6,924 nt of DNA from JAYEMH01 sp034717985 [NCBI: Candidatus Ratteibacteria bacterium]. Lineage in GTDB: Bacteria; CAZDME01; JAYEMH01. The notes under the pieces are model-generated. The model saw nothing but the letters and a program-made list of their open reading frames with translations, did not search any database and was not told the origin of the DNA. This document shows, one piece after another, positions 698-4,654 of this stretch. The stretch covers positions 3,207 through 10,130 of the forward strand of contig JAYEMH010000026.1 in assembly GCA_034717985.1 (NCBI GenBank), in the 5' to 3' direction. The position numbers and the translations under genes are program-made. How positions within the stretch are numbered: the stretch's first letter is position 1; the number at the start of each line of letters is the position of its first letter.

Positions 698-1714
698 ATG
701 AAAGAAAAATTAGAACAAATCAGAAAAGAAGCTTCGGCCCTTATTGATAAAGCCTCCGTAATGGAAGAGCTTGAGGAAATTCGAATTAAGTATTTGGGCC
801 GGAGGGGCGAGTTAACCCAGCTGCTCCGTAATTTGGGGGGGCTGGAGCCTTCCGAGCGTTCCCAGGCGGGCAGAATGGCCAATAATCTCCGGGAACATAT
901 AGAGTCTAACCTCAGCCAGAAATTAAATTTGCTCCGGGAGGCAAAAAGAGAAGTTGAATTGGGGCAAGGGGTGGATATTACCCTGCCCGGACGAAATCCT
1001 CAAATAGGCAGAATGCATCCCATCACCCGGCAGTTAAAGGAAATAACCGATATCTTTCTCAAAATGGGATTTATCCTGGCCGAAGGGCCGGAGATTGAAA
1101 CCGAATATTATAATTTTGCGGCCCTGAATACGCCTTCAGATCATCCGGTGCGGGATACCCAGGATTCGTTTTACCTGGGGAAAAAAATACTGCTGCGAAC
1201 TCAGACCTCGCCGGTGCAAATAAGAATTATGGAGAAATTCAAGCCGCCGCTCAAGGTTATCTCTGCCGGGCGTTGTTTCCGGCGCGATGCGGCTGATGCT
1301 TCGCACACACCGATGTTTCATCAAGTGGAGGTTTTTCAGGTGGATAAAAATATAACCTTTGGCGATTTAAAAGGGATGCTGGAAATTTTTGTCCGCTCTT
1401 TATTTGGCCGGAAAACCAAACTGCGCTTTCGTCCGAGTTTTTTCCCTTTTACCGAACCCAGCGCCGAAGTGGATATTAGCTGTGTCATCTGCCGGGGGAA
1501 GGGGTGCTCGGTCTGCCGGCGGAAAGGCTGGCTGGAAATTTTAGGGTCAGGAATGATTGACCCGAATGTTTTAAAAACGGTCGGATATAATCCGGAAGAA
1601 GTCAGCGGATACGCCTTTGGCATGGGGGTTGAGCGGATTGCGATGCTGAAATACGGGATTAATGATATAAGATTGTTTTTTGAAAACGATTTAAGATTTC
1701 TGGAGCAGTTTTGA
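698..1714 (+). CDS. pheS: Phenylalanine--tRNA ligase, alpha subunit
   Basis: This is the catalytic alpha subunit of the alpha2beta2 phenylalanyl-tRNA synthetase, which charges tRNA-Phe with phenylalanine using ATP in the cytoplasm. At 338 residues it has the normal bacterial length. Residues 1-90 are the charged helical coiled-coil arm that contacts tRNA. The class II core follows: motif 1 around HPITRQLKEITDIF (107-120), the substrate-pocket segment PSDHPVRDTQDSFYL (146-160), motif 2 around GRCFRRDAADASHTPMFHQ (191-209), and motif 3 around GYAFGMGVERIAML (304-317). Four cysteines, C262, C265, C270 and C273 (C-x2-C-x4-C-x2-C), form a knuckle before the WLEILGSGM strand. From memory, a similar cysteine cluster occurs in PheS of Gram-positive and many other bacteria but not E. 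coli; it could bind zinc. The start is 3 nt after the ktrA stop and has no strong Shine-Dalgarno site, which suggests translational coupling. The partner pheT lies unusually far downstream, at 2018. Confidence 0.98.
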   Translation: MKEKLEQIRKEASALIDKASVMEELEEIRIKYLGRRGELTQLLRNLGGLEPSERSQAGRMANNLREHIESNLSQKLNLLREAKREVELGQGVDITLPGRNPQIGRMHPITRQLKEITDIFLKMGFILAEGPEIETEYYNFAALNTPSDHPVRDTQDSFYLGKKILLRTQTSPVQIRIMEKFKPPLKVISAGRCFRRDAADASHTPMFHQVEVFQVDKNITFGDLKGMLEIFVRSLFGRKTKLRFRPSFFPFTEPSAEVDISCVICRGKGCSVCRRKGWLEILGSGMIDPNVLKTVGYNPEEVSGYAFGMGVERIAMLKYGINDIRLFFENDLRFLEQF

Positions 1715-1730
1715 AACAAAAAGATAAATT

Positions 1731-1876
1731 AACCACAGAGGACACGGAGAAAAAATAACCACAGAGCACACAGAGAAGAAACACAGATTGCACAGATTAA
1801 AGAAAAAAATAGCTACAACACACGGAGAAAAAATAACCACAGAAAAAGAAATTAACCATAGATGGACACAGATTCA
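1731..1876 (+). repeat. Array of degenerate CACAGAG-type repeats between pheS and pheT
   Basis: Six imperfect units of about 17-26 nt share a core like AACCACAGAGCACACAGAG followed by an A-rich tail. Approximate positions are 1731-1755, 1757-1778, 1780-1800, 1812-1833, 1834-1850 and 1853-1876. Later units are more degenerate: one has CACAGATTGCACAGATT and one has CCATAGATGGACACAGATT. The units are direct, irregularly spaced and lack unique spacers of constant length, so this is not a CRISPR array. From memory, similar ACCACAGAGGACACAGAG-like sequences are scattered between genes in several uncultured or environmental bacterial lineages; their function is unknown to me. The strand is given as the orientation in which the motif reads CACAGAG. 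No credible gene is present in the 303-nt gap. Confidence 0.85.
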
Positions 1877-1896
1877 AATAGGCGGGAGAAGGAAGA

Positions 1897-1919
1897 CCCC
1901 GAAGGACAAGCCTACGGGG
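1897..1919. repeat. Small GC-rich inverted repeat inside the pheS-pheT gap
   Basis: CCCCG at 1897-1901 can pair with CGGGG at 1915-1919 around a 13-nt loop, and GCCT (1910-1913) can alternatively pair with AGGC (1921-1924). The segment is markedly more GC-rich than the A-rich repeats on both sides, so it looks like a separate small dispersed element embedded in the array. It has no T-tract after it, so it is unlikely to be an intrinsic terminator. Confidence 0.5.
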
Positions 1920-1961
1920 CAGGCGCGAAAAGGGGGAGAGGATGAGAATAATCTTCTTTCG

Positions 1962-1982
1962 TTTACCGTCTACCGTTTACCG
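1962..1982 (+). repeat. Three tandem heptamers (TTTACCG / TCTACCG / TTTACCG)
   Basis: Three contiguous 7-nt copies lie at 1962-1968, 1969-1975 and 1976-1982, the middle one with a single T-to-C change. The run sits between the GC-rich inverted repeat and the last CACAGAG unit. It has no evident coding or regulatory meaning. It may be the edge of a small dispersed element or a polymorphic microsatellite. Confidence 0.7.
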
Positions 1983-1989
1983 TAAAAAT

Positions 1990-2013
1990 AACCACAGAGC
2001 ACACAGAAAAAAT
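1990..2013 (+). repeat. Final CACAGAG-type repeat unit, abutting the pheT start
   Basis: This unit is AACCACAGAGCACACAGA plus an A-rich tail, close to the unit at 1757-1778. It ends 4 nt before the pheT ATG at 2018, so the repeat occupies the position where the pheT ribosome binding site would normally be. No GGAGG-like sequence is present; the only purine stretch near the start is the A-rich tail. Confidence 0.8.
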
Positions 2014-2017
2014 AAAG

Positions 2018-4096
2018 ATGAAGTTTTCCTATGATTGGCTGAAAGAATATATAGATATTAGATTGTCCCCGGAGAAGCTGGCGGAAATCCTGACCATGAT
2101 CGGGATGGAGGTGGAAAACTACCATAAATCCAGCGACGGTGATTTAATATTCGAATTAGAACTGACTTCCAACCGTCCCGATTGCGCTAATCTTACCGGC
2201 ATCGCCCGGGAATTAGGGACAGCGCTGAAAAAAAGAGTGAAATATCCCGCTTTCAAAATCCGTGAGGGGAAAGAAAAAATCGGCGGGTTTGTTAAAATAG
2301 AGGTAAAAGATACCAAGTTTTGTCCGCGGTATGCGGCGCGGGTAATCAGAAATTTAAAAGTGGGACCGTCACCTGCCTGGCTGAGTTCCCGTTTGGAAAA
2401 AGCGGGACTGCGTTCGGTTAATAACGTGGTCGACGCCGCCAATTTTGTCCTGATGGAACTGGGGCATCCACTGCACACCTTTGACCTGGATGCCTTAAGT
2501 AAAAGCCGGATAATTGTCCGCCGGGCAAAGAAAGGGGAAAAGATTATCACCATCGATATGGCAGAAAGAAATCTTTCTGACGATATATTGGTAATTGCCG
2601 ACGCCGAAAAACCCCAGGCAATTGCCGGGATTATAGGCGGAAATCTTTCTGAAGTGAAAGGTTCAACCACCAGCGTTCTTTTAGAAAGCGCTTATTTTGA
2701 AAAAGGGGCGATTCGGCGGGCCGGGAAGAAACTAAATATAATAAGCGAGGCCTCTTACCGTTTTGAAAGAGGAACAGATCCTGATGGCCTTATTTTGGCT
2801 GTTGATAGAGCGGCGGAATTAATCCGGGAACTGGCCGGCGGAGAAATTGCCAGGGGGCGGATTGATATTTACAAAAAACGCATTCCCCGTCGGAGACTGG
2901 AATTGAATTTGGAAAAATTGAATCGTCTTTTAGGCACCGGATTGGGCCCGGAGGAGGTTAAGCGAATTTTTAGAAGGTTAGAATTTAAAATCAACGCCGG
3001 CACAAAAAAGAAGATTAAAGTAACGGTGCCCGGTTTCCGGGGCGATATCGAGCGGGAAATTGACTTGATTGAAGAGGCGGCCAGGCATTATGGATATGAC
3101 AAAATTAAAGCTACACTGCCTCAAGCGGCGATTAGCCCTCCGGATGCCCGCCCGGGCGGTCTTTTAGACCGTACGCTGACCGAAATCACTTTTGAAATTT
3201 TTGAGAAATTGGGATTGCAGGAAGTGGTGAATTATAGCTTTATCAACACCGATACGCTGCGGGCGCTTAATTTGAATGAAACAGTTTTAGAAAAAGGATT
3301 GATCCGGGTTAATAATCCAATAAGCAATGAGCAGGATATTATGAGGCCGACGCTTCTTGGCGGTTTGCTCGGCAATATTTCCCGGAACTTTAACCGGCAG
3401 AGGCAGGAGGTTAAAATTTTTGAAGTCGGCAGGATATTCTATAAGGAAAAAGGGACGGAAAAAATTACCGAAAAGACGGCGGCAGCGGCGGCGATAACCG
3501 GAAGCTTTGCCCGAAGCTTCGGGAGAAATGAGACGATAGATTTGTTTGACCTGAAGGGAATGATCGAAGCCTTCTTAAAGAGGTTGGGGATTTCGTCCTT
3601 TTCTTTGTTGAAAGGAAGTTTGCCCTGTTTCCACCCGCAGAATTCAGCCCGGATAATAAAAGACGGTAAAAAAGCGGGCTGGTGGGGCGAGATAAATCCG
3701 GCAGTTAGCGAAACGCTGGGACTTAAGGGAAAAATCTTTGCCGCCGAGATAATCCTGGATGAACTTTCACCCTGGGTGGATTTGAGCCGGCAGTTTAAGC
3801 CCCTGCCGAAATTTCCCTCCATTGAACGGGATTTATCCCTGCTGGTTCCCGAAACGGTAACATCCGAAGAAATTACTGAAATAATTAAAAATGAAGGAGG
3901 CTGTCTGGTTGCGCAAATCGAGTTGTTCGATGTTTATCAGGGCAAACAGGTTCCCGAAGGGTTTAAGAGCTTCGGATATAACCTGACCTATCGTTCGCCG
4001 TCAAAAACGCTGACCGATGAACAGGTTAATGATTTGCACCGTAAAATTTCCCGATTATTAGAAAACAACCTGAAAATAAAAATAAGAGGAGGATAA
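2018..4096 (+). CDS. pheT: Phenylalanine--tRNA ligase, beta subunit, short form lacking the OB-fold (B2) domain
   Basis: This is the non-catalytic beta subunit that pairs with PheS, binds tRNA-Phe and removes mischarged tyrosine. The N-terminus MKFSYDWLKEYID is canonical, which fixes the start despite the lack of a Shine-Dalgarno site. At 692 residues it is about 100 shorter than the usual 790-810. After TMIGMEVENY (26-35) the chain passes within a few residues to LIFELELTSNRPDC (43-56), whereas E. coli PheT has an EMAP-II-like OB-fold between the equivalent points. The remaining domains are intact: B3/B4 editing region (about 93-280) with GLRSVNNVVDAANFVLMELG and PLHTFD; B5 (about 292-365) with PGFRGDIEREIDLIEE; the catalytic-like B6/B7 region (about 385-595); and the C-terminal ferredoxin-like anticodon-binding domain (598-692) with FPSIERDLSLL and YRSPSKTLTDEQV. 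H153 and E250 (in YRFERGTDP) match known editing-site residues, so proofreading is probably kept. The last codons overlap an AGGAGG sequence. Confidence 0.97.
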   Translation: MKFSYDWLKEYIDIRLSPEKLAEILTMIGMEVENYHKSSDGDLIFELELTSNRPDCANLTGIARELGTALKKRVKYPAFKIREGKEKIGGFVKIEVKDTKFCPRYAARVIRNLKVGPSPAWLSSRLEKAGLRSVNNVVDAANFVLMELGHPLHTFDLDALSKSRIIVRRAKKGEKIITIDMAERNLSDDILVIADAEKPQAIAGIIGGNLSEVKGSTTSVLLESAYFEKGAIRRAGKKLNIISEASYRFERGTDPDGLILAVDRAAELIRELAGGEIARGRIDIYKKRIPRRRLELNLEKLNRLLGTGLGPEEVKRIFRRLEFKINAGTKKKIKVTVPGFRGDIEREIDLIEEAARHYGYDKIKATLPQAAISPPDARPGGLLDRTLTEITFEIFEKLGLQEVVNYSFINTDTLRALNLNETVLEKGLIRVNNPISNEQDIMRPTLLGGLLGNISRNFNRQRQEVKIFEVGRIFYKEKGTEKITEKTAAAAAITGSFARSFGRNETIDLFDLKGMIEAFLKRLGISSFSLLKGSLPCFHPQNSARIIKDGKKAGWWGEINPAVSETLGLKGKIFAAEIILDELSPWVDLSRQFKPLPKFPSIERDLSLLVPETVTSEEITEIIKNEGGCLVAQIELFDVYQGKQVPEGFKSFGYNLTYRSPSKTLTDEQVNDLHRKISRLLENNLKIKIRGG
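4087..4092 (+). promoter_or_regulatory. Strong Shine-Dalgarno sequence at the pheT end, upstream of zapA
   Basis: AGGAGG lies inside the last pheT codons. It is 29 nt before the chosen zapA ATG (4122), too far for normal use, but 5 nt before an in-frame ATT at 4098 that would add eight residues (ISTARQAI) to ZapA. It may serve an unusual ATT start, act through folding of the gap, or be a chance product of Arg-Gly-Gly codons. Confidence 0.4.
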
Positions 4097-4463: not shown

Positions 4464-4621
4464 AAGAGAATCCCTGCCTTGCACGTGAGAAAAAAGTAAT
4501 CATTTGAACCAACACTATTAAACAGGGAGCCTGACTTTAGGTAGACAAAATATCTAAGAGGGCACCCACCTGTAAAAATGCAGGTTCAAAGGTATTTTTT
4601 TCCACGGTACCGGCGGGGATT
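4464..4621 (+). ncRNA. ssrS: 6S RNA
   Basis: 6S RNA mimics an open promoter, binds the housekeeping RNA polymerase holoenzyme and represses transcription in stationary phase. Hand folding supports this call. AATCCCTGCC (4469-4478) pairs over 10 bp with GGCGGGGATT (4612-4621). CGTG (4484-4487) pairs with CACG (4603-4606), A-run 4490-4495 with T-run 4595-4600, and TTTGAACC (4503-4510) perfectly with GGTTCAAA (4583-4590). A central bubble follows (5' side about 4511-4524). Beyond it GGGAGCC (4525-4531) faces GGCACCC (4561-4567) with one A-A mismatch, capped by a 7-bp hairpin (4537-4543 with 4551-4557). ACCTGT (4568-4573) can also pair with GCAGGT (4580-4585), like the 3' bubble hairpin of known 6S RNAs. 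The length of about 158 nt is slightly short for the family (about 180-190). Its place between zapA and the folate cyclo-ligase gene matches E. coli. T residues at 4620-4624 after the stem may help set the 3' end. Exact ends are inferred. Confidence 0.92.
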
Positions 4622-4654
4622 TTTATTAAGGGGAGATAAGAGGGAAATTAAAGT

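What the first reader, a model, noticed from the sequence alone, without database searches (positions are those of the whole stretch)
1715..2017. A composite repeat array splits the pheS-pheT operon
pheS and pheT encode an obligate heterotetramer and are usually a few bases apart. Here 303 nt of non-coding sequence separates them, made of at least seven degenerate CACAGAG-type units, a GC-rich inverted repeat and three tandem heptamers. Three different repeat classes nested in one gap suggest successive insertion of small dispersed elements at one permissive site, or a repeat family with modular structure. All units face the same way as transcription. The function and mode of spread of this repeat are unknown to me. 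It could be a non-autonomous element, or a transcribed element that affects the balance of PheS to PheT.
Basis: partly seen in the sequence, partly recalled or inferred. Interest (0 to 1): 0.6.

Follow-up and report, generated by a model that had tools for sequence, protein, structure and literature searches.

The report
Word-repeat cluster between pheS and pheT
The gap between two partner genes of a tRNA-charging enzyme holds what look like leftover copies of short tandem-word repeats; elsewhere the same kind of repeats forms matching inverted ends around a small nuclease-type gene or a small helical-protein gene, which suggests a little-described class of tiny mobile elements.

Summary
Window 1715-2017 is a 303-nt non-coding pheS-pheT gap with nine CACAGA words, all on one strand (expected 1.0), a weak GC-rich hairpin and 3.4 CGTTTAC heptamers. 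Of 57 measurable pheS-pheT junctions 29 are at most 30 nt and 13 at least 100 nt; L004 holds CACAGAG arrays too, inverted. In cellular loci such arrays are mostly inverted pairs (28 of 39), in viral contigs mostly solo (85 of 97). Inverted arrays flank GxxExxY genes (PD-(D/E)XK-type): 23 of 30, replicate 13 of 17, ParE/RelE control 0 of 29; inverted heptamers flank four-helix-bundle (23S-IVS-type) genes: 28 of 41. Words differ between elements; the two ends match each other. In a Geobacter-family operon 38 of 101 orthologous junctions are empty and 44 carry inverted arms. The window's arrays lack an inverted partner (p=0.44), so I read them as a degenerate one-sided cluster of this repeat class. 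Array pairs were published in Geobacter in 2009 as putative regulator sites; my searches found no paper linking them to these genes. Mobility and nuclease action are inferred.

The parts
698..1714 (+). pheS, gene upstream of the gap
   Evidence: Pfam PF01409 E=1.3e-102, PF02912
1732..1749 (+). 9-nt word array 1 (ACCACAGAG GACACGGAG)
1758..1775 (+). 9-nt word array 2 (ACCACAGAG CACACAGAG); perfect match to the CCACAGAGNACACAGAG consensus
1780..1799 (+). variant array 3 (AACACAGATTGCACAGATTA)
1814..1844 (+). degenerate units 4 (ACAACACACGGAG ... ACCACAGAA)
1855..1877 (+). variant array 5 (ACCATAGATGGACACAGATTCAA)
1897..1919 (+). GC-rich hairpin (CCCCGAAGG...CCTACGGGG)
   Evidence: the stretch is not stronger than shuffles (z -0.44)
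1960..1983 (+). 7-nt word array (CGTTTAC x3.4), the kind of array that flanks four-helix-bundle genes elsewhere
   Evidence: class assignment by word length,
1991..2008 (+). 9-nt word array 6 (ACCACAGAG CACACAGAA), ends 9 nt before the pheT start
2018..4096 (+). pheT, gene downstream of the gap (short form, no tRNA-binding OB domain match)
   Evidence: Pfam B3_4, B5, CLM and FDX-ACB domains, no tRNA_bind match

Best explanation
The gap is a pile of degenerate, one-sided copies of 'word arrays': short tandem runs of 9-nt (NNCACAGAG-like) and 7-nt (CGTTTAC-like) words. In complete form such arrays are the two inverted ends of compact elements, about 50-600 nt, that sit between genes, often in operon junctions, and may bracket one small gene: a GxxExxY PD-(D/E)XK-type protein for words of about 9 nt, or a four-helix-bundle (23S-IVS-type) protein for 7-nt words. 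Shown: the arrays, the pairing of the ends, the association with the two gene families, presence/absence at orthologous Geobacter-family junctions, and the correlation of word with protein. Inferred: that the elements are (or were) mobile, that the encoded protein recognises the word array or the hairpin it forms and makes the cut or synapsis that moves or copies the element, that non-coding copies are mobilised in trans, and that the window's direct-only cluster arose by repeated insertion, loss of right ends and 9-nt slippage. Any effect on pheT expression is open; the first 150 nt of the gap is predicted to be unstructured RNA.
For: Inverted complementarity of flanks above the 99th percentile of 800 control ORFs: GxxExxY 23 of 30, four-helix bundle 28 of 41; mismatched pairs 5.1% of 806 and 1.9% of 1528. 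Independent Omnitrophota sample 13 of 17 (mismatched 6.6% of 256); ParE/RelE control 0 of 29. Best word period 8-10 nt in 20 of 23 GxxExxY arms and 7 or 14 nt in 24 of 28 four-helix arms. Arrays of the window's own word bracket GxxExxY in L089/L136 and in Bacteroides L445. In tool-chosen cellular loci neighbouring arrays at most 900 nt apart are ordered +- 19 times and -+ once. Empty and filled orthologous junctions: 38 and 63 of 101; GxxExxY-carrying insertions in L249 and L254. One 9-nt unit differs between L248 and L256 in the left arm only. Word similarity follows protein similarity between genomes: r=0.39, p=0.0003, unchanged after correction for GC. Conserved catalytic-type positions: D 26/26, E 26/26, K 25/26, Q 26/26, Y 24/26. 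L004 has CACAGAG arrays, inverted, in the same pheS-pheT gap.
Against: The window's gap has no inverted pairing (p=0.44) and no gene. Its own genome is not held, so neither copy number nor a GxxExxY gene in it is known. In viral contigs the same word is mostly solo (85 of 97 arrays), with neighbours ordered +- 8, -- 10, ++ 3, -+ 2, and no GxxExxY was found in the 80 loci. Even in tool-chosen cellular loci 11 of 39 arrays are solo. Two of nine genomes with the word pattern (G018, G046) have no GxxExxY match and a third (G004) only fragments. Only 1 of 31 non-coding elements carries a detectable GxxExxY remnant. I saw no clear target-site duplication. Of plasmid-borne GxxExxY genes 3 of 8 pass the arm threshold. 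Nineteen of 63 filled Geobacter junctions lack significant arms, and some of those hold a gene or other sequence. The 9-nt period is weak when averaged (mean z 0.8-1.0 at lags 9-10, against 4.0 at lag 7 for four-helix arms). The word-protein correlation also fits plain co-inheritance.
Confidence: 0.52

Rival explanations
1. The arrays are binding sites of a regulator (DNA-binding such as IHF/HU, or an RNA-binding translational regulator), kept by selection in intergenic regions; the pheS-pheT cluster regulates pheT.
For: Published reading for paired tandem-repeat sites in Geobacter metallireducens (PMC2700814, passages) and for TAACTGA heptamers in Beggiatoaceae, mostly forward and upstream of start codons (PMC4679880, passages). 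In the window all arrays are sense and the last ends 9 nt before pheT. Solo arrays dominate in viral contigs.
Against: The word differs from element to element while the two ends tend to match each other, which one regulator does not explain. Orthologous junctions differ freely between species. Orientation relative to genes is not strongly biased among solo arrays of viral contigs: 36 sense, 22 antisense, of 94.
Confidence: 0.22
2. The cluster is a product of replication slippage: a neutral 9-nt and 26-nt tandem repeat that grew at a permissive junction, with no mobile history.
For: 26-nt tandem period in 1722-1843; single 9-nt unit difference between L248 and L256; direct orientation only in the window.
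Against: The same word recurs at many unrelated loci and in distant phyla and brackets a specific gene family; slippage does not make inverted ends or carry genes. The last window array (1991-2008) is separated from the rest by other repeat classes.
Confidence: 0.14
3. The elements are intercistronic RNA hairpins selected for differential mRNA stability or processing inside operons, in the way REP elements can act, and mobility is secondary.
For: Inverted elements fold strongly: z -3.8 to -10.3 for the eight Geobacter-family junctions folded, L004 gap z -9.5. They sit between co-directional genes of an operon.
Against: Does not explain the association with two specific protein families; the window's own gap folds only weakly (z -2.8) and its first half not at all.
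Confidence: 0.09
4. Assembly artefact: repeats misjoined at pheS-pheT.
For: Such arrays may break assemblies: a number of copies in G042 lie within about 140 nt of a contig end.
Against: Both genes are intact and adjacent, and L004 shows the same word in the same junction independently.
Confidence: 0.03

Closest known systems
Paired 'global regulator binding sites' of Geobacter metallireducens (Aklujkar 2009, PMC2700814; passages and supplement legends seen)
   Same: Tandem repeats of about 7-9 nt, mostly in pairs on opposite strands at variable distance; class 2 consensus TCTCCGTS[Y] is the complement of the CACGGAGA variant of the window's word; class 3 is heptameric.
   Different: Read there as IHF/HU or regulator sites; in the passages seen no link to GxxExxY or four-helix genes and no end-to-end word matching. 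The window has no pair.
TAACTGA direct repeats of Beggiatoaceae and Cyanobacteria (MacGregor 2015, PMC4679880; passages seen)
   Same: Short tandem heptamers, intergenic, mostly sense, upstream of start codons; mobility considered there.
   Different: Single heptamer word; one inverted case only.
23S rRNA intervening sequences encoding S23p (Coxiella, PMC4990558; passages seen)
   Same: Small element with terminal inverted repeats around a four-helix-bundle protein gene; function unknown.
   Different: In rRNA, excised by RNase III; no 7-nt word arrays described in the passages seen.
REPIN/RAYT and MITEs (recalled; PMC3116915 seen in a search listing only)
   Same: Short dispersed intergenic elements with inverted ends, non-autonomous copies beside copies with a gene.
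   Different: Ends here are tandem-word arrays with an element-specific word; the genes are PD-(D/E)XK-type or four-helix proteins, not a Y1 or DDE transposase.

Membership tests
Word-array element (class described here) | Tandem 7- or 9-nt words of the known families | tested here: met
   Window 1732-2008
Word-array element (class described here) | Inverted array at the other end | tested here: not met
   Window gap p=0.44; solo arrays are 11 of 39 in tool-chosen cellular loci and 85 of 97 in viral contigs
Word-array element (class described here) | GxxExxY or four-helix gene between the ends | tested here: not met
   The one listed ORF of the gap has no Pfam match
Word-array element (class described here) | Presence/absence at orthologous junctions | tested here: inconclusive
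   Met for Geobacter-family elements; for the window only distant relatives (51-62% PheS identity) could be compared
MITE | Terminal inverted repeats | tested here: not met
MITE | Target-site duplication | tested here: inconclusive
   No clear duplication at Geobacter junctions by eye; not assessable in the window
REP/REPIN with RAYT | RAYT (Y1 transposase) gene in the genome | not testable with these tools
   Own genome not held
23S IVS | Insertion in an rRNA gene | tested here: not met
   The gap lies between pheS and pheT; no rRNA match in the window
CRISPR array | Near-identical repeats with unique spacers of even length | tested here: not met
   Degenerate short units; the 26-nt period is only 66% matched with 17% indels
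Geobacter paired class-2 sites | Paired sites on opposite strands | tested here: not met
   All window arrays on +

The most novel reading that the evidence does not exclude
A widespread, undescribed class of compact bacterial mobile elements has termini made of inverted arrays of 7- or 9-nt words whose sequence is private to each element and is matched between its two ends. They encode either a GxxExxY PD-(D/E)XK-type nuclease or an S23-like four-helix protein that recognises the words. They turn over rapidly in operon junctions, spread non-coding copies, and leave solo arrays such as the pheS-pheT cluster, also in tailed-phage genomes.
Probability: 0.43. Interest if true: 0.85.

Novelty: new variant of a known kind. 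Interest (0 to 1): 0.62.

Why it matters
GxxExxY and the S23-like four-helix proteins are annotated in several bacterial phyla without a function that I could find. If their genes are the cargo or motor of word-array elements, two orphan families, several unexplained intergenic repeats (Geobacter paired sites, possibly TAACTGA heptamers, rRNA IVS) and many odd gaps inside operons fall under one testable model. The matching of ends within an element, with different words between elements, also raises a direct question of how both arms are kept in step.

Tried and rejected
Rfam: only 6S RNA reached a gathering score in the window. Own-genome copy counting was impossible. A literature search on the raw word CCACAGAG listed only unrelated papers among the 20 shown of 964. 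Four-helix and IVS searches listed nothing useful; searches did. A strong sense-strand preference of solo arrays was considered and not supported (36 sense, 22 antisense). GxxExxY remnants as the general origin of non-coding elements: 2 of 32 elements had a hit, one intact and one decayed; 0 of 32 in shuffled and 0 of 32 in reversed controls. GxxExxY in phage records by tblastn with one query: no match. GxxExxY in solved structures by sequence: no match. A clear target-site duplication: not found by eye. The first pheS-pheT gap table was wrong for long-form PheT and was replaced; there 57 of 80 loci gave a measurable junction, with start codons chosen by a simple N-terminal rule, so single values may be off and some junctions (for instance L044, L075) are missing from it. 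Structure prediction was not run.

Counts I replaced: searches (62 of 73 arrays paired, partner allowed up to 4 mismatches; its random-anchor control hit 189 of 504 because the loci were fetched for their arrays; +- 30, ++ 2) include 20 regions of G042 that I picked by hand, some because a pair was visible. One search repeats the test with one rule on tool-chosen cellular loci (28 of 39 paired; order +- 19, -+ 1), the hand-picked regions (14 of 21 paired; +- 10, ++ 2) and viral loci (12 of 97 paired); I use those. One search gave 88 of 100 solo in viral loci before removal of duplicates.

Rows dropped or chosen: one search covered 48 of the 80 PheS genomes (I left out mostly Firmicutes); one search covered 33 of those 48 (all nine with the word pattern). 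Six partial GxxExxY hits of 36 over the cut-off were left out (30 used). Of 102 four-helix matches 44 were given and 41 kept (two with a missing flank, one with N). Of 33 rows, 3 had been used, 18 were given and 17 kept. One ParE locus of 30 was dropped. In the Geobacter test 20 of 75 relatives were fetched, chosen by hand among those with several operon pieces. The word-protein test used 32 elements with arm score above 26. Confidences of the element reading were lowered slightly (0.55 to 0.52, novel case 0.45 to 0.43) after the recount.

Full report
What is in the window. The window carries a TrkA-type protein, pheS (698-1714), a 303-nt gap, pheT (2018-4096), zapA, a 6S RNA, 5-formyl-THF cyclo-ligase and RNase Y. 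The gap holds five or six short arrays of NNCACAGAG-like 9-nt words, a GC-rich hairpin and a CGTTTAC heptamer array, all on the transcribed strand. The word count is far beyond chance: 9 CACAGA against 1.0 expected, with no shuffle of 200 reaching 9.

Is the gap unusual? The window's genome is not held and no close relative came up in the genome collection: the 80 best PheS matches are 51-62% identical, from Omnitrophota, Atribacteria and others. Of 57 loci with a measurable pheS-pheT junction, 29 are at most 30 nt, 15 are 31-99 nt and 13 are at least 100 nt. L004 (Ca. Erginobacter) has a 210-nt gap bounded by CACAGAG arrays in inverted orientation. L075 has direct CACAGA-type arrays and a GC-rich stretch much like the window. 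Of 25 gaps of 40-700 nt tested for inverted pairing, 8 reach p<=0.01 (L001, L004, L013, L015, L016, L037, L058, L068) and 17 do not. L044, not in that table, holds inverted heptamers by eye (fold z -7.1).

What the arrays are elsewhere. The pattern ACCACAGAGNACACAGAGA (at most 1 mismatch) is present in 9 of 48 genomes behind the PheS loci (48 of 80 searched), with 0 matches for the reversed control in all 48; one genome (G042, Ca. Stahlbacteria) has 50 copies. In the phylum of G021 (Omnitrophota) it is present in 4 of 145 genomes. In the tool-chosen cellular loci 28 of 39 arrays with 900 nt on both sides have an inverted partner, and neighbouring arrays are ordered +- in 19 cases and -+ in 1. 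So in these cells the array is usually one end of an element with inverted ends; the unit is 9 nt and the interior varied from 6 to 537 nt in 32 elements.

Two protein families sit between such ends. L089 showed an intact GxxExxY gene (TIGR04256 E=5.5e-43, PF13366 E=6.3e-42) between CACAGAG arrays. I then read the flanks of GxxExxY genes at large. TIGR04256 occurs in 15 of 33 genomes, and most full-length genes lay between arrays that are reverse complements of each other, but with a different word in different elements. Four-helix-bundle genes of the 23S-IVS type (TIGR02436; 20 of 33 genomes) mostly showed the same architecture with heptamers. The statistic is a local alignment of the 220 nt upstream with the reverse complement of the 320 nt downstream. 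Scores above the 99th percentile of 800 control ORFs: 23 of 30 GxxExxY and 28 of 41 four-helix genes. Upstream flanks paired with downstream flanks from other genomes exceed it in 5.1% of 806 and 1.9% of 1528 pairs. The true partner was the single best against all other-genome downstream flanks in 19 of 30 and 28 of 41. A second sample, Omnitrophota GxxExxY genes, gave 13 of 17 (mismatched 6.6% of 256), and a patchily distributed control family of similar size (ParE/RelE, PF05016) gave 0 of 29. Best word period among arms above threshold: 8-10 nt in 20 of 23 GxxExxY arms, 7 or 14 nt in 24 of 28 four-helix arms; the 9-nt signal is weak on average (mean z 0.8-1.0), the 7-nt signal strong (4.0). 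On plasmids 3 of 8 GxxExxY genes pass; the Bacteroides finegoldii copy has CACAGAG-type arrays at both ends. In the 6 plasmid loci with annotated neighbours the GxxExxY gene is co-directional with both, for example between fabD and fabG in Sphingomonas.

Presence and absence. One Geobacter-family hdr operon in G017 contains four CACAGAG elements in successive gene junctions. All 76 genomes of the family searched, G017 included, had some match to the query and 20 relatives were fetched, chosen by hand. Over five junctions and up to 21 genomes, 101 junctions could be read: 38 are empty (at most 20 nt) and 63 filled; 44 of the 63 have inverted arms at p<=0.01 against dinucleotide shuffles. The same junction holds different elements in different species: CACAGAG, CGCAGAG, CACAAAG, heptamers, GTAGGGGCG palindromes, and in two cases (L249 at hdrB-hdrA, L254 at the mvhD-E junction) a GxxExxY gene between CACAAAG-type arrays. 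L248 and L256 share an element that differs by one 9-nt unit in the left arm only, which points to slippage. I could not define a target-site duplication.

The protein. In 26 aligned GxxExxY proteins D and E are invariant and K is 25 of 26, in a D...ExK arrangement as in PD-(D/E)XK enzymes; a Q (26 of 26) and Y (24 of 26) follow four residues apart. That QxxxY resembles RecB/Cas4-type nucleases is recalled, not tested. No solved structure matches by sequence. Word similarity follows protein similarity between elements from different genomes (32 elements, 484 pairs, Mantel r=0.39, p=0.0003, unchanged after removing host GC difference). This fits word recognition by the protein, but also plain co-inheritance of the element as a unit. 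Genome-level co-occurrence is partial: 7 of 9 genomes with the CACAGAG pattern have a GxxExxY match (G004 only fragments) against 8 of 24 without it (from; Fisher p about 0.03 by hand).

How the window differs. The gap has no inverted pairing (observed score 14 against a shuffle mean of 13.1, p=0.44), no recognisable gene, and an unstructured first half (MFE -0.2 kcal/mol). It is therefore not a complete element. Solo arrays exist: 11 of 39 in tool-chosen cellular loci and, strikingly, 85 of 97 in viral contigs, with neighbours ordered +- 8, -- 10, ++ 3, -+ 2. Two of these contigs were looked at: L346 has a terminase and a major head protein and L333 a tail fibre protein by PHROGs. L399 has three same-strand arrays within 350 nt mixed with other repeat classes, as in the window; it was the only such case among the loci scanned, L081-L403. 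The viral result counts against a simple 'arrays are always nuclease-element ends' reading, and fits either decay to solo ends or a separate role of single arrays.

Mechanism. I commit to the element reading: arrays are ends of small insertion-prone elements that settle in operon junctions; the encoded protein most likely acts on the word array or its hairpin; solo and direct clusters are what is left after loss of one end and slippage. Shown: architecture, association, presence/absence (in other organisms). Inferred: mobility, protein action, history of the window's cluster. The regulatory reading has published precedent and is the main rival.

Relation to the literature. [quoted passage not shown] class 2 (TCTCCGTS[Y]) is the complement of the CACGGAG variant and class 3 is heptameric (PMC2700814, passages and supplement legends). 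G. [quoted passage not shown] TAACTGA heptamers in Beggiatoaceae are mostly direct and upstream of start codons (PMC4679880, passages). S23p of the Coxiella 23S IVS lies in an element with a 28-bp terminal inverted-repeat stem (PMC4990558, passages). A 23S_rRNA_IVP domain occurs in rRNA insertions of CPR bacteria (PMC11270868, passages). The two papers that mention GxxExxY do so in passing (passages). No paper linking the arrays to GxxExxY or S23-like genes came up in the listings of searches; those listings were partly capped, the library lacks most subscription journals and I did not read supplements, so this is weak evidence of novelty.

Noticed in passing
window 2018-4096: PheT is a short form: no tRNA_bind (OB) domain match, and many relatives align only from about residue 42, presumably because they carry the extra domain there.
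   Followed up: partly
window 4468-4623: 6S RNA (79.9 bits) between zapA and the 5-formyl-THF cyclo-ligase gene.
   Followed up: no
L324-L403: The CACAGAG array is common in viral contigs (at least 120 stretches), mostly solo; two contigs looked at have phage structural genes. Several arrays are followed by CTTAAAAC octamer runs before an ATG.
   Followed up: partly
L166-L195, L221-L235: Most four-helix-bundle (23S-IVS-type) genes sampled here lie between inverted heptamer arrays with element-specific words (28 of 41 above threshold).
   Followed up: yes
L165 1502-1711 (G073): A roughly 200-nt CACAGAG element holds a decayed C-terminal GxxExxY fragment with a stop.
   Followed up: yes
L447 (Sphingomonas plasmid): A GxxExxY gene sits between fabD and fabG of a fatty-acid operon, with a CGCGAAG array on the left side only.
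   Followed up: no
L253, L257, L258, L262, L265 and L068 junctions: Elements that begin GTAGGGG and end in its complement occupy the same kind of junctions as word-array elements.
   Followed up: no
L058 7047-7687: 639-nt pheS-pheT gap with strong inverted complementarity (score 47) of an unrelated kind.
   Followed up: no
L013 6981-7079: The pheS-pheT gap holds a TTGTCATTGCGAGG...GCAATGAC inverted element, another intergenic repeat.
   Followed up: no
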